Source of the DNA: Candidatus Rifleibacteriota bacterium | GTDB taxonomy: Bacteria > Muiribacteriota > Ozemobacteria > Ozemobacterales > Ozemobacteraceae | NCBI GenBank assembly: GCA_012517355.1 | Contig: JAAYVD010000126.1 | Location: 1 to 64,000 of the forward strand | Direction: 5' to 3' | DNA length: 64,000 bases | Shown: positions 43,480-48,396 of the stretch, piece after piece | Position numbering within the stretch: the stretch's first letter is position 1 | Layout of the letters: each line of letters opens with the position of its first letter | Notes under the pieces: generated by a model | What the model was told of the DNA's origin: nothing | What the model saw: only the letters and a program-made list of their open reading frames with translations | The model's database searches: none | Translations under genes and position numbers: made by a program

Positions 43480-44742
43480 TCACCCGAGGGGGAGGGTGAT
43501 GATGAAGCGGTTCCCGTCGTCGAGCGGTTCGACCCAGGCCCGGCCGTTCATCATCAGGATGAACTGGCGGACCAGGTACAGGCCCAGGCCCGTTCCGGGC
43601 ACGTCGGGGCCATCCTCGCGTCGGAAGAACTTTTCGAAGATCCGGTCACGGTCGGCCGGCGGAATGGGGATGCCGGTATTCTCGACCCGTATCTGCACGA
43701 GGTCTCCTTCCTCGACCATGGCCACGGTGATCCGGCCGCCCTCGGGAGAGTACTTGGTGGCGTTGACCAGCAGGTTGTCGAGGATGCGCTCGAGCAGGTA
43801 GGGGTCGTGGTTGACGGGCGGGGTCGGCGCGGTGTCCAGTTCGAGGGTCAGCCCGCGGGTGGCGGCCACCGGCCGGATCCGTTCGGCCACCGTCCGGACC
43901 AGGCCGTCGATCTGGCCGAGGGTCAGGCGGGCGGCCAGATCCTCCGACTGCAGGCGGGTGAGATCGAGGGCGTTCTTGGTCATGCGGCCCAGTTCCTCGA
44001 TCTCGACGGCCATTTCGGCGAACCGCTTCCGCAGATCCTCGGGGAGTTCCTCCGCCCGCTGGCGGATGAGGTTGGCGTGGCCGACGAGGCGGGCCAGCGG
44101 AGTGCGCAACTCGTGCGAGACGAGGGCGAGGAAGTTGCTCTTCAGGCTCCCGAGCTCCTCGAGGTTCCGGTTGGCCCGCTCCAGTTCCTGGTTCTTCACC
44201 TCCATCTCGAAGAACACGTCGGACAGCTTGCGCGCCAGGTAGACGAACAGCAGGAAGACCCCGCCGATCAGCAGCAGGCCGGCCGTCCAGACCAGGACCC
44301 GGAACGACTCGAGGCGGGCGTAGAAGGTGCGTTTGCTCTGCAGGGCGACCCGGGCCCCCGCCCCGACCGGGACCACCCAGACGATGACCGGCCCCGAGGC
44401 CCCGCCCGCCAGTTCCAGGCCGGCTTCGGCCGTCGATCCGTAGGACTGCCGGATGGCCTGGATCCTGCCGACATCGAAATCCGCCGGCCAGTCCGGGCTG
44501 CAGTCGAGCAGCGAAGCCCCATCGCTGGCCAGGAAGGCGGTGGCGTAGGACCGTGCCCCGCTGGCGACGGCTTCGGCGAGCGGGGGCGGCACGGCGCGGA
44601 GGGCGGCGGCGCGCTGCCCGTGGAGACTTTCGCGCATGCCCTCGGTGAGGGCGTGGTAAGCCCAGAAGGTGAGCAGCAGCAGGATGGCGGGGAACGCCGC
44701 CATCAGGATGAGCAGGAAGGTGGGGGGCCCCCGCCCGTTCAT
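43480..44742 (-). CDS. Membrane sensor histidine kinase
   Basis: 420 aa. Two TM helices (FLLILMAAFPAILLLLTFW and VLVWTAGLLLIGGVFLLFVY) enclose a periplasmic sensor of about 130 residues. A coiled coil leads to the DHp domain with the phospho-His in LVSHELRTPLARL, then the ATPase domain with ILDNLLVNATKYSP, NTGIPIP and GTGLGLYLVRQF. It probably phosphorylates the NtrC-type regulator at 41571-42983. It overlaps the MFS gene by 4 bp (ATGA), so the transporter and kinase are made together. Confidence 0.93.
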   Translation of the reverse strand: MNGRGPPTFLLILMAAFPAILLLLTFWAYHALTEGMRESLHGQRAAALRAVPPPLAEAVASGARSYATAFLASDGASLLDCSPDWPADFDVGRIQAIRQSYGSTAEAGLELAGGASGPVIVWVVPVGAGARVALQSKRTFYARLESFRVLVWTAGLLLIGGVFLLFVYLARKLSDVFFEMEVKNQELERANRNLEELGSLKSNFLALVSHELRTPLARLVGHANLIRQRAEELPEDLRKRFAEMAVEIEELGRMTKNALDLTRLQSEDLAARLTLGQIDGLVRTVAERIRPVAATRGLTLELDTAPTPPVNHDPYLLERILDNLLVNATKYSPEGGRITVAMVEEGDLVQIRVENTGIPIPPADRDRIFEKFFRREDGPDVPGTGLGLYLVRQFILMMNGRAWVEPLDDGNRFIITLPLG

Positions 44743-45956
44743 CCCCCCTCCGCGGCGTCGATGGACGACAGGCCCCGGATGCGGGCGAACCGCCAGGTCA
44801 GAACCAGGGTTCCCACCCCACAGATGCCGTAGCACCATGGCACCCCGATGGCGTCGGACAGGCTGCCGGCCCCGGCCAGGGCGATGGGGAACAGGGCATA
44901 GCAGACCACTTCGACGAGGGCGAAGAAACGGCCCTTCATCTCGGGGGCCACCGCCCGCTGGAAGAGGGTCAGCACGGCGACGTTGACCCCGGTGAAGCAG
45001 CCCCCGAGCAGAAACAACATGGCCAGGAACAGCCCGAACACCGGGTTGACGGCGAACAGCAGGAACAGCAGGCCCGAGAAGCCGACGATGCGCACCAGCA
45101 ACACCGAGGTGCGGACCTCCCCGAACATCTGGGGGAACAGCAGGCCGGTCACCACCGAGCCGAAGGCGAGGGCCCCCTCGCTGAGCCCCAGTTCGAACGA
45201 TCCGAGGTGGAAGACCTTGGCCACCGACAGGGGCAGCAGGACGATGATGGGCACGACGAACAGGTTCAGCGCCCCGAAGCCGACCAGGACCTGCAGCAGC
45301 ACCGACTGGCTGCGAACGTAGCGCAGGCCGGCCCACAACTGCTCGAAAACGCCTTCGCGGGTCTCGCCGCCCTCGCGCTCGCCGATCGTCATGAGGCCCA
45401 CGCAGCAGGCGGAAAAGACCAGGCACCCCGCGTGCGAGGCGAACGCCTCGACTACCGACCAGCGGGCGATGATCAGGCCGCCGATGGAGGGGCCGACCAG
45501 CTTGGAGATGTCGCGCACGATGGTGTGCAGGGCCATGGCCTCATCGAGGCGGTCGGGCGGCACGACCCGCGGGATCACGGTCAGGGTGGTCGGGCTGTGG
45601 AACACCCCGGCGGTGGCCAGCAGGCCGCACAGCACGAACAGGTGTTTGACGGCCAGGGCGTCCTGCTGGGCAAGCCAGGCGAAGAAGACGATGAGGACGG
45701 CCCGGAAGAGGTCGGCCCCGATCAGCAGCACCTTGGCCGGAAGCCGGTCGGCGAGGGTGCCGGCGAAGGGGCCGATCAGGATGGCGGGCAGGAAGCTGAC
45801 GCTCATGATGAAACCGACGATGGTGCCCGACCCCGTCTTCTGGATCAGCCACCAGAGCATGGCCGTGGTGAAGATGCCGTCACCGATGAAGGTGATCAGC
45901 TGCGCCATCCACAACAGGCGGAAATCGCGTCGTTCCTGAAGAATTGCCAGTCCCAT
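44739..45956 (-). CDS. MFS transporter
   Basis: 405 aa, about 12 TM helices. The first loop has GPFAGTLADRLPAKV, the usual MFS signature position. FIGDGIFTTAMLWWLIQKTG opens TM1-2. The family is like the macrolide-efflux/MefA-type and lysophospholipid-exporter branches, but the substrate is unknown. The promoter TTGAAA-17-AATACT lies at 46013-46041. The kinase overlaps its end, suggesting that the transporter and signalling system belong together. Confidence 0.9.
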   Translation of the reverse strand: MGLAILQERRDFRLLWMAQLITFIGDGIFTTAMLWWLIQKTGSGTIVGFIMSVSFLPAILIGPFAGTLADRLPAKVLLIGADLFRAVLIVFFAWLAQQDALAVKHLFVLCGLLATAGVFHSPTTLTVIPRVVPPDRLDEAMALHTIVRDISKLVGPSIGGLIIARWSVVEAFASHAGCLVFSACCVGLMTIGEREGGETREGVFEQLWAGLRYVRSQSVLLQVLVGFGALNLFVVPIIVLLPLSVAKVFHLGSFELGLSEGALAFGSVVTGLLFPQMFGEVRTSVLLVRIVGFSGLLFLLFAVNPVFGLFLAMLFLLGGCFTGVNVAVLTLFQRAVAPEMKGRFFALVEVVCYALFPIALAGAGSLSDAIGVPWCYGICGVGTLVLTWRFARIRGLSSIDAAEGG

Positions 45957-46041: not shown

Positions 46042-46317
46042 GCAAAATCGGCCCGGAATGGGCAGGTGAGGGTGGAGAGCAGGATTCCTGGCGGCCACGG
46101 TCGCCCCCGCGGCAACATGGGCGGCTGGCACCCGCGATGGGAAAAGGATGCACGGAGGACCGGGCCCGGTTTCGTCCGGGAAAGGGGACCGGGCGGAGGC
46201 CTTCCGGGTGAAGGGCCCGGCTGGGCCCCCTGGCCGGGCGCCGAACGGGTGTTCCCGTCGGCCCACCGGGGTGGCTGGGGAGGTCCTTCCGACCCCGGGT
46301 CGGCGCCGCCGCCCCCC

Positions 46318-46400
46318 GGCAGCCGACGCCCGCCGGTCAGCCGCCGCCCCCCGTCAGCCGCCGCCCCCCGTCAGCTGACGCCCGCCGGTCAGCCGCCGCC
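46318..46400. repeat. Short GC-rich tandem repeat
   Basis: Units of about 17 bp, built on CAGCCGCCGCCCCCCGT and a variant with GACGCCCGCCGGT, repeat four to five times just downstream of, and slightly into, the radical SAM gene end. The rest of the 46042-46388 gap has no gene. Confidence 0.65.
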
Positions 46401-47504
46401 GGCCAGGGGCGGGTTCCAGGCCTCGACCAGGCTGCGGGCGGCCCGGGCAACGTTCTCGAGGAGGGTGGGCCGGTCGAAACACTGCGGGTCGGCCCCGAAG
46501 GGGTCGCCCGTCACCGCCAGGGCCACCCCCCGGCAGCCGCCGCACCGCCACCGGATCAGGCACCGGCCGCACCGGCCCCGGAGCCGGTCGCGGTCGCGCA
46601 ACCGGACCATCAGGGGGTGGTCCCACAGGTCGGCGAGGCTTGTCTCGTAGGCGTTCCCGAGGGGCAGCGGCAGCCGGCGGCAGGGATACACCGTGCCGTC
46701 GGCCTCCACGCAGATACCGGACTGGCCGGCCGAGCACCCCGCCGCATACGGTGAGGGACACCGCTGGCCGACGAACACGTTCCACAGCGGGTCGCGCCGG
46801 GGAAGCCCCAGCCCCGGAAACCGGCCGGCCGCGGCCTGGACGGCCCCAAACGCTTCGGCCAGACGGGCGGCCGGCAGGACGGTGGCTGCCCGGTCACCAC
46901 CCCGTCCACACGGGACGAACCGGCTGAACCCGAACCGGTCGGCTTCGCGGGCGGCCAGGGCCATCACCCCGTCCAGGTCGGCGAGATTGGCCGACGACAG
47001 GCACATGGCCACGGTCGTCGACACCCCGGCAGCCCGCAGGTGACGCAGCCCGGCCAGGGCCCGGCCGAAAGCCCCCGGGCCGCGCAGACGGTCGTGGGTC
47101 TCTTCGAGCCCGTCGAGGCTGACCTGCACGATGGCCACCCCGGCGGCGGCCAGGGCCCGCGCCTCCGCCGCCCCGACCAGGGTTCCGTTCGTCAGGATCC
47201 GCACGGGGAGGCCTTCCCCCCTGATCAGGGAAAGGATCTCGAACAGGCGGGGCGCCAGCAGGGGCTCGCCACCGGCCAACTGGACCCGCGCCGGCAGGAA
47301 CGGGGCCCGGGGCCGCAGGGACCGGAACCCCGCCAGGACCTGCCTCACCTGTTCACGATCGGGCCTGGGTGACCGCCCGTCCCCTTCGCCGGGCTGGTAA
47401 CAGTGGCCGCAGCGGAGATTGCAGGCGGAAGTCAGGTGCCATTGCAGGAAAAAGGGCTCTCCCGGGCGAAACCGCCGTGGCCATGGATGCCGGATCCTGG
47501 GCAA
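46389..47504 (-). CDS. Radical SAM/SPASM peptide-modifying enzyme
   Basis: 371 aa. The [4Fe-4S] SAM-binding motif is SACNLRCGHCY, followed by VQLAGGEPLL, and ILTNGTL and VSLDG as in the radical SAM barrel. The C-terminal SPASM/twitch domain has CSAGQSGICVEADG, VYPCRRL, and a dense CGRCLIRWRCGGCRG ending DPQC, enough for two auxiliary clusters. SPASM enzymes often modify ribosomal peptides, e.g. by cross-linking Cys. It starts with TTG at 47504, three bases after the stop of the Cys-Ser-tailed protein, implying translational coupling and that this protein is its substrate. The substrate assignment is inference. Confidence 0.93.
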   Translation of the reverse strand: MPRIRHPWPRRFRPGEPFFLQWHLTSACNLRCGHCYQPGEGDGRSPRPDREQVRQVLAGFRSLRPRAPFLPARVQLAGGEPLLAPRLFEILSLIRGEGLPVRILTNGTLVGAAEARALAAAGVAIVQVSLDGLEETHDRLRGPGAFGRALAGLRHLRAAGVSTTVAMCLSSANLADLDGVMALAAREADRFGFSRFVPCGRGGDRAATVLPAARLAEAFGAVQAAAGRFPGLGLPRRDPLWNVFVGQRCPSPYAAGCSAGQSGICVEADGTVYPCRRLPLPLGNAYETSLADLWDHPLMVRLRDRDRLRGRCGRCLIRWRCGGCRGVALAVTGDPFGADPQCFDRPTLLENVARAARSLVEAWNPPLAGGG

Positions 47505-47507
47505 GGG

Positions 47508-48344
47508 CTAACCCCCGCAGGACCCGCAAGAGGAGCAGCTCGAACAACTCGAACAGCTCGAGCAACTCGAGGAGGACGAGGAATCGGAGGAGGAATACGA
47601 AGAGTCGGCAGACGAGGAATCGGATGAGTAGGACGCATCGGCCTCCGCCTGCATCGGGGTCCGGCTGCAGGAGGCGAGCCAGTTCAGACCGCCCAGGAGG
47701 GCCATCAGGAGGCAGCCGACGGCACACCCGGATTCCCCGCAACTGCCGGCCCGGCCGGGGGCCGCCACCGGCGAGTCGATCCAGCCGGGGGTGAACTCCA
47801 GCCGCAGGGCGGGGTACGGAGGGGTCTCCCCCGACCAGACCTCGGCGATCCGGCCGTCAGGACCGGGCTGGGCGACGAACCCCGGCCAGTTGCCGGTCAC
47901 CTGGCAGGAGGGAAGTTCGGCCGGCAGCAGGACCCGGACCGAAACATTCTGCACGGGAACGCGAAACTTCCCCACCCAGTCGAGGTCGAGCCGGTTCTTC
48001 GCCCGCGACCCCGAAAGCGCGCGCGCGATCCGGAAATCGGCCACGATCGTCTGGCTGGCCCCGGCGGATACGGCCGGGAATTTCCAGGTGATCTGCTCCT
48101 CGCGCAGGTGCGACAGGTTCCACTGGAGGGGTTTCCCGTCGCCATCGGTGACCGCCGCGACCGTCACCGGGTTGGTGCCGACGAATTTGAACCCCCCGTC
48201 TTTCGAGCCCTGGAGGATCTCGTAGGTGATGAGCATCCGCACCTGCAAGTCGATCATCAACCCGTTCTGCCCCGCCACCGGTTGCAGGGTCAGGTCATAC
48301 CGGGAGATCTTCGTGGTCAGGTCGGGGGTATCGAACAACGCCAT
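47508..48344 (-). CDS. Membrane protein with C-terminal Cys-Ser-Ser repeat, probable radical SAM substrate
   Basis: 278 aa. Residues 1-195 form a beta-rich domain (ISRYDLTLQPVAGQNG, MIDLQVRMLITYEIL) somewhat like DUF2207-type extracellular domains. One TM helix at about 208-226 (CAVGCLLMALLGGLNWLAS) follows. The tail of about 45 residues is Ser/Asp/Tyr-rich, ending in six Cys spaced every third residue (CSSCSSC... then CGSCGG). No N-terminal signal peptide is seen. Such a regular Cys tail beside a SPASM enzyme is the pattern of thioether-forming peptide systems, but here it is attached to a large protein. The promoter TTGGTC-17-TACTCT lies at 48368-48396. The opposite strand also has an acidic frame here, which lacks support. 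Confidence 0.8.
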   Translation of the reverse strand: MALFDTPDLTTKISRYDLTLQPVAGQNGLMIDLQVRMLITYEILQGSKDGGFKFVGTNPVTVAAVTDGDGKPLQWNLSHLREEQITWKFPAVSAGASQTIVADFRIARALSGSRAKNRLDLDWVGKFRVPVQNVSVRVLLPAELPSCQVTGNWPGFVAQPGPDGRIAEVWSGETPPYPALRLEFTPGWIDSPVAAPGRAGSCGESGCAVGCLLMALLGGLNWLASCSRTPMQAEADASYSSDSSSADSSYSSSDSSSSSSCSSCSSCSSCSSCGSCGG

Positions 48345-48367
48345 GGCAATTCCTCTCCGTCACGGGA

Positions 48368-48396
48368 AGAGTAGCACATCCAGGCGGACGGACCAA
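48368..48396 (-). promoter_or_regulatory. Promoter of the Cys-tail / radical SAM operon
   Basis: Minus-strand TTGGTC (48391-48396), 17 bp, TACTCT (48368-48373). The leader is about 17 nt with GGAGAGG before the ATG at 48344. Confidence 0.6.

What the first reader, a model, noticed from the sequence alone, without database searches (positions are those of the whole stretch)
46389..48396. Radical SAM/SPASM enzyme coupled to a membrane protein with a repeating Cys-Ser-Ser tail
Seen: one promoter drives a 278-aa protein with a beta-rich domain, one TM helix and a Ser-rich tail ending in six Cys at every third residue. Three bases later begins a SPASM-type radical SAM enzyme. Known: SPASM enzymes often cross-link Cys in ribosomal peptides. 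Inferred: the tail of a large membrane protein is modified, forming e.g. a thioether- or metal-bearing surface stalk. This differs from usual short precursor peptides, has no visible leader peptide or export gene, and may be a new modification system.
Basis: partly seen in the sequence, partly recalled or inferred. Interest (0 to 1): 0.82.

Follow-up and report, generated by a model that had tools for sequence, protein, structure and literature searches.

The report
Cysteine-tailed membrane protein with its maturase
A two-gene unit, found in bacteria of several phyla and in archaea, pairs a radical-SAM enzyme with a membrane-anchored protein whose tail repeats cysteine every third residue; the pairing is conserved widely enough that the enzyme very probably modifies that tail, though the chemistry and purpose are still unknown.

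Summary
At 46389-48344 (minus strand), a 278-aa protein with a beta domain, one hydrophobic segment and the tail CSSCSSCSSCSSCGSCGG lies 3 bases upstream of a radical-SAM/SPASM gene. The proposed promoter was not supported. The seven closest distinct homologues of the enzyme (two Elusimicrobia, Auribacterota, Lentisphaerota, Muiribacteriota, Undinarchaeales, Lokiarchaeota) all have a Cys-repeat tail gene immediately upstream. The rest of the partner varies: a shared beta domain in some, only a membrane helix plus tail (57 and 71 aa) in others. More distant enzymes of the same clan sit beside TIGR04222-domain or TPM-domain membrane proteins with GCGG/SCSSCGG tails, or beside ACGX peptides. So the tail is the constant element and the likely substrate. 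The nearest named families (ACGX, SbtM, TIGR04222) are not met at their cut-offs. TIGR04222 Cys tails are known only as putative MNIO-enzyme substrates (PMC12452194); I found no description of radical-SAM pairs with such tails. Most likely chemistry: several Cys-to-carbon thioethers per tail (inferred; moderate confidence). Function: possibly metal handling (speculative). Rating: new variant of a known kind, with a real cross-domain substrate-enzyme pairing.

The parts
47508..48344 (-). Tail protein, 278 aa, probable substrate of the enzyme
   Evidence: ORF; 32-35% identical to proteins in the same position in Elusimicrobia, Auribacterota and Lentisphaerota, 22% to a Lokiarchaeal one
47790..48314 (-). 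Beta-sandwich domain (residues 11-185), resembling the N-terminal beta domain of M1 aminopeptidases and ribophorin-like proteins
   Evidence: AlphaFold2 model, pLDDT mostly 66-94 in this part; Foldseek best hits M1 aminopeptidases/OST subunit, E about 1e-7, TMq 0.4-0.47; fold similarity only, no catalytic domain
47673..47729 (-). Predicted hydrophobic (membrane) segment, residues 206-224
   Evidence: Kyte-Doolittle mean 1.75 over 19 residues; relatives 1.88-2.58
47565..47633 (-). Ser-rich linker, residues 238-260
   Evidence: sequence; pLDDT below 50
47511..47564 (-). Cys-repeat tail CSSCSSCSSCSSCGSCGG, residues 261-278
   Evidence: sequence; equivalent tails in all close relatives
47505..47507 (-). 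3-base junction between tail gene and enzyme gene; the tail's last Gly codons (GGGGG) are placed to serve as ribosome site for the TTG start (inference)
   Evidence: sequence; in relatives similar G-rich codons precede or overlap the enzyme start
46389..47504 (-). Radical-SAM/SPASM enzyme, 371 aa, probable tail maturase
   Evidence: PF04055 and PF13186 above cut-offs; TIM-barrel model, best structural hit SkfB 6efn
47400..47423 (-). CxxxCxxC motif (C28, C32, C35) for the SAM-binding [4Fe-4S] cluster
   Evidence: invariant in alignment A1
46479..46736 (-). SPASM region with seven invariant Cys (257, 275, 312, 315, 321, 324, 342) and the clan motif CRR

Best explanation
The two genes form a substrate-enzyme pair. 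The radical-SAM/SPASM enzyme binds the Cys-repeat tail of the membrane protein made just before it from the same mRNA and modifies it. The protein body (beta domain, or in relatives only a membrane helix) acts as carrier, in the place where a RiPP has a leader peptide. Most likely chemistry: a SPASM cluster holds a tail Cys thiolate, the 5'-deoxyadenosyl radical takes a hydrogen from a nearby Ser/Gly, and a thioether forms, losing 2 Da; repeated along the tail this gives a multiply cross-linked, membrane-anchored Cys segment. Shown: gene order, conservation, tail constancy with body variability, enzyme family. Inferred: that the tail is the substrate (about 0.85), thioether chemistry (about 0.45), a metal- or redox-related role (about 0.3).
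For: (1) The seven closest distinct enzyme homologues (37-49% identity, at least 236 bits; the next best is 184) all have a Cys-tail ORF immediately upstream. By a strict automatic criterion 6 of 7 pass against 3 of 101 other radical-SAM loci (Fisher p = 3e-7); the seventh, Lokiarchaeal, fails only because it has three Cys instead of four. (2) Tails are alike but bodies are not: beta domain (L032 twice, L033, L034, L035, L036), helix plus tail only (L037, L052), TIGR04222 (L004, L013, L206), TPM (L068). (3) Starting from the tail rather than the enzyme: in 40 own-phylum genomes the C-terminal CxxCxxCGG tails on real ORFs are the window, G028 (both beside this enzyme) and one SlyD-like soluble protein; in 248 Elusimicrobia only the two genomes with the enzyme have such tails on real ORFs. 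(4) All three TIGR04222 proteins above cut-off in the phylum carry Cys tails and lie at a locus of this enzyme clan. (5) The enzyme tree puts the Cys-tail, TIGR04222, TPM and ACGX enzymes on one side, SH-aLRT 82, and the window with four Cys-tail enzymes at 96. (6) SkfB, a sactisynthase, is the best solved-structure hit by sequence and by fold; SkfB and CteB have an auxiliary cluster with an open site able to bind a substrate Cys (PMC8326336), and this enzyme has seven invariant SPASM Cys, one short of two full sets of four.
Against: No modification has been measured. The enzyme has no RRE domain, usual in RiPP radical-SAM enzymes. Deep tree branches have only moderate support (82-91) and long branches meet. 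TIGR04222-type tails in two genomes of the L035 phylum have no radical-SAM gene within 1.5 kb, so such tails can exist without it. The tail offers only Ser, Gly and Cys as acceptors, unusual for known ranthipeptides. The sampled group is small: seven loci besides the window.
Confidence: 0.8

Rival explanations
1. The tail is a plain metal- or Fe-S-binding Cys tail (like the SlyD tail), unmodified; it supplies metal or clusters to the radical-SAM enzyme or tethers it to the membrane, and the enzyme acts on another molecule.
For: Cys-rich tails without radical-SAM neighbours exist: a SlyD-like protein (L180) and TIGR04222-type proteins L201 and L205. Free thiols at this spacing would bind soft metals.
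Against: No other conserved candidate substrate gene lies beside the enzyme in the window, L034, L037 or L052. Related enzymes sit beside short Cys-repeat peptides with no other role in sight (ACGX).
Confidence: 0.13
2. The enzyme modifies the tail but not by thioethers: for example Cys or Ser oxidation, thio-heterocycle formation as proposed for SbtM, or epimerisation.
For: SbtM (annotated thio(seleno)oxazole modification maturase) is among the two closest named families (155.4 bits; best for L037 at 189.9 bits). MNIO enzymes turn Cys of bufferins into thiooxazoles, and TIGR04222 Cys tails are putative MNIO substrates (PMC12452194).
Against: The best solved-structure relative is the thioether enzyme SkfB. 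The SbtM model is far from met (155 against 350 bits).
Confidence: 0.35
3. The neighbourhood is an accident of operon structure and the Cys repeat is drifting low-complexity sequence.
For: Part of the tail-coding DNA forms an imperfect 9/18-bp tandem repeat. The same-genus genomes lack both genes.
Against: Same order and tail in six other phyla including archaea, with divergent bodies; mixed synonymous codons.
Confidence: 0.02

Closest known systems
ACGX system (TIGR04340 radical-SAM enzyme, acgM, with ACGX-repeat peptide)
   Same: Same clan on the enzyme tree; substrate gene just upstream carries regularly spaced Cys; shares the DxLW and CRR motifs. Best NCBIfam match of the window enzyme (162.9 bits).
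   Different: Far below the family cut-off of 400 bits. ACGX substrates in L041, L043, L056, L062, L063 and L066 are short peptides with ACGx units, not a membrane protein with CSS units.
TIGR04222 membrane proteins with C-terminal Cys/Gly/Ser tails, putative MNIO substrates (PMC12452194)
   Same: Membrane protein ending in a low-complexity tail interspersed with Cys, next to a putative tail-modifying enzyme. In the window's own family, true TIGR04222 proteins lie beside radical-SAM enzymes of this clan.
   Different: The window protein has no TIGR04222 domain and the partner is radical-SAM, not MNIO. The words DUF2207 and SPASM do not occur in that paper's main text.
SbtM thio(seleno)oxazole maturase (TIGR04082)
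   Same: Second-best NCBIfam model of the window enzyme over residues 11-343 (155.4 bits).
   Different: Cut-off 350 bits; the match begins at model position 192, so the N-terminal part of SbtM is absent.
SkfB (sactisynthase, PDB 6efn)
   Same: Best PDB match by sequence (E 2.6e-19) and by fold (E 3.5e-15).
   Different: SkfB has an RRE and a short secreted peptide substrate and a twitch-type C-terminal domain (PMC8326336); this enzyme begins at the radical-SAM core and has a SPASM Cys set.
DUF2207 membrane proteins (PF09972/PF20990)
   Same: A DUF2207_C protein is the first gene of the operon in L032, L033 and L035; the window beta domain gives a weak DUF2207 signal.
   Different: Window protein 13.2 bits against a 24.4 cut-off, and no DUF2207_C protein found in the window's genome.

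Membership tests
Radical SAM superfamily with SPASM domain | PF04055 and PF13186 above gathering scores; CxxxCxxC; SPASM Cys set | tested here: met
   79.4 and 43.7 bits; invariant C28/C32/C35 and seven SPASM Cys
ACGX system | Enzyme above the TIGR04340 cut-off (400 bits) | tested here: not met
   162.9 bits; the more distant L068 enzyme does meet it, 460.4
ACGX system | Short peptide with ACGx repeats beside the enzyme | tested here: not met
   278-aa protein with CSS repeats
SbtM / selenobacteriocin system | Enzyme above the TIGR04082 cut-off (350 bits) | tested here: not met
   155.4 bits
TIGR04222 membrane proteins | TIGR04222 domain above 43 bits | tested here: not met
   no NCBIfam match to the window protein; none in the genome
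TIGR04222 membrane proteins | Membrane segment followed by a Ser/Gly tail with Cys | tested here: met
DUF2207 | PF09972 above 24.4 bits | tested here: not met
   13.2 bits, E 0.1
RiPP (broad sense) | Adjacent dedicated enzyme and a core region that varies around fixed target residues | tested here: met
   adjacency and tail alignment
RiPP (broad sense) | Leader peptide recognised by an RRE and later removed | tested here: inconclusive
   core lies at the C-terminus of a full protein; the enzyme starts at the radical-SAM core with no RRE
Sactipeptides / ranthipeptides | Cys-to-carbon thioether in the product | not testable with these tools
   needs mass spectrometry or NMR

The most novel reading that the evidence does not exclude
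A transferable protein-tail modification system shared by bacteria and archaea: a radical-SAM/SPASM enzyme installs serial Cys cross-links on a modular C-terminal CxxC...CGG tag that evolution attaches to unrelated membrane proteins, making a mature membrane-anchored stalk instead of a released peptide.
Probability: 0.35. Interest if true: 0.82.

Novelty: new variant of a known kind. Interest (0 to 1): 0.64.

Why it matters
It would extend radical-SAM modification from short secreted peptides to tails of membrane proteins, with the tail acting as a transferable tag recognised in bacteria and archaea. It also links three poorly understood groups (ACGX, TIGR04222 and DUF2207-type Cys-tail proteins) through one enzyme clan, and it suggests that radical-SAM and MNIO enzymes may be alternative partners for similar tails, which is directly testable.

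Tried and rejected
Single-sequence search of 57 relatives with the tail protein found only the window itself. A profile search added one weak hit, L175. A loose Cys-tail DNA pattern was useless: hundreds of chance hits; a stricter pattern worked. Plasmids hold only distant radical-SAM relatives. In viral contigs the best hit (33%) has no Cys tail beside it. No Rfam family in the neighbourhood. Export gene: an MFS transporter (44739-45956) follows about 430 bases downstream on the same strand, but I saw no sign of it beside the pair in relatives (ORF lists, not all annotated), so I do not count it. Anaerobic sulfatase-type Cys-to-formylglycine chemistry was considered and set aside: from memory, those enzymes carry a catalytic Asp after the second SPASM Cys, where this clan has Arg (CRR). 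Papers: no hit for TIGR04340 or for DUF2207 with radical SAM; open-access library only.

Full report
OBSERVATION. The tail protein (47508-48344, minus strand) has a Shine-Dalgarno-like GGAGAGG before its ATG and ends CSSCSSCSSCSSCGSCGG, Cys at 261, 264, 267, 270, 273 and 276. The enzyme starts with TTG 3 bases after the tail gene's stop. It passes the Pfam cut-offs for Radical_SAM and SPASM. The only unsupported detail is the promoter: a sigma-70 consensus scan finds none there.

A scan of 84,980 species genomes for the enzyme gave seven distinct loci well separated from the rest (37-49% identity, 236-341 bits; next 184): Elusimicrobia L032 and L033, Auribacterota L034, Lentisphaerota L035, Lokiarchaeota L036, Muiribacteriota L037 (the same contig as L003, whose genome the tools place in the window's phylum) and Undinarchaeales L052. 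In every one the gene just upstream ends in a Cys repeat. A strict automatic criterion gives 6 of 7 against 3 of 101 other radical-SAM loci, Fisher p = 3e-7; the Lokiarchaeal tail (GGCGGGCGGCGG, three Cys) misses the criterion by one Cys. The three others that pass are themselves clan members: L004 and L013 (TIGR04222 protein with GCGGGCGG tail) and L068 (TPM protein with SCSSCGG tail, whose enzyme meets the ACGX model at 460 bits).

TAIL CONSTANT, BODY VARIABLE. Window, L032 (two copies in tandem), L033, L034 and L035 share the beta domain (32-35% identity to the window); the Lokiarchaeal one is remote (22%) and has an N-terminal signal-like segment. L037 and L052 are only 57- and 71-aa ORFs: helix plus tail. 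Shared by all is the C-terminal C-x-x or C-x-x-x repeat rich in Ser and Gly, mostly ending in CGG. This is what is expected if the tail is the enzyme's target and the body is cargo or carrier. In L032, L033 and L035 a DUF2207_C membrane protein precedes the tail gene(s), making a three- or four-gene operon; the window's genome gave no DUF2207_C match.

TAIL-FIRST SEARCHES. To avoid starting from the enzyme I searched DNA for CxxCxxCGG tails. In 40 genomes of the phylum the tails that end real ORFs are the window, G028 (both beside this enzyme) and one SlyD-like protein. In 248 Elusimicrobia only the two enzyme-bearing genomes have them. In 388 genomes of the L035 phylum there are L035's own genome and two TIGR04222-type proteins without a radical-SAM gene in 1.5 kb flanks (the TIGR04222 assignment of these two is by eye). 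So the beta-domain tails seen here always come with the enzyme, whereas TIGR04222 tails need not, in keeping with PMC12452194, where TIGR04222 genes are linked to MNIO enzymes or to neither. Within the window's phylum, though, all three TIGR04222 proteins above cut-off have Cys tails and lie at a locus of this enzyme clan; in G014 the two genes are about 2 kb apart on opposite strands.

ENZYME CLAN. A tree of 110 sequences groups the window with the four beta-domain enzymes (SH-aLRT 96) and places the Cys-tail, TIGR04222, TPM and ACGX enzymes on one side (82); support at depth is moderate and several long branches meet. Members of this side share a CRR motif in SPASM, and many share a DxLW motif before it, which the other radical-SAM enzymes aligned lack. 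The subfamily itself is rare: 2 of 40, 2 of 248 and 1 of 388 genomes at over 500 bits. The same-genus genomes have neither gene, so lateral transfer or repeated loss is likely (inference).

STRUCTURE. The tail protein model shows a mostly confident beta region (residues 11-185), a short helix and a disordered tail. Its fold resembles the N-terminal beta domain of M1 aminopeptidases (TMq about 0.45). The enzyme model is a radical-SAM barrel; the best solved relative by fold and sequence is the sactisynthase SkfB. Both models rest on only 7-8 sequences.

MECHANISM. Established for relatives: SkfB and CteB carry an auxiliary cluster with an open coordination site that can hold a substrate Cys (PMC8326336). 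The enzyme here has seven invariant SPASM Cys, one short of two full sets, compatible with such an open site. I therefore favour serial thioether formation between tail Cys and Ser/Gly carbons. This is inference; thio-heterocycles and other oxidations remain open. Tail location is also open: PMC12452194 predicts periplasmic tails for TIGR04222, while the positive charges after the helix in L036, L037 and L052 suggest a cytoplasmic side (sequence inspection). The enzyme, which has no signal peptide in sight, would act in the cytoplasm in any case.

NOVELTY. Named families were tested and not met (ACGX, SbtM, TIGR04222, DUF2207). Radical-SAM enzymes paired with Cys-repeat substrates are a known kind. 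A Cys-repeat tail on a membrane protein as the substrate, in bacteria and archaea and with exchangeable bodies, is a variant I found no description of in the open-access library; subscription journals were not searchable.

Noticed in passing
46389-47504 and L032, L033, L034, L035: The enzyme's own C-terminus is Gly-Gly-Gly in the window and its four closest relatives, although the residues before it differ; none of the other 105 homologous loci examined ends in GG. The tail proteins also mostly end in GG. Unexplained.
   Followed up: partly
L209 (G038:C391): A 790-aa reading frame with a weak TIGR04222 match ends in a (CHSA)n repeat...CHSACHSACHDAC..., and radical-SAM similarity begins about 1 kb downstream of that match: a Cys/His version of the same theme in the same phylum.
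   Followed up: partly
46301-46404: G+C-rich tandem repeat (17- and 35-bp periods, about 6 and 3 copies) spanning the end of the enzyme gene and the region after it.
   Followed up: no
L152 (1141-1434) and L153 (1162-1422): Elusimicrobial radical-SAM relatives preceded by short peptides with irregular TGC/GCSSC units and an MSLKNL/MSLSNL-type start like the ACGX-type peptide in L158; possibly further peptide families.
   Followed up: no
L038 (8089-8487): Planctomycetal relative of the enzyme has a 132-aa ORF ending TCSGGGCSSCKGCSS about 1 kb downstream instead of upstream.
   Followed up: no
L180 (G013:C105): SlyD-like peptidyl-prolyl isomerase (by eye) with a short C-terminal SCAGSCGSCGGCGG tail; a possible unmodified metal-binding comparison.
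   Followed up: no
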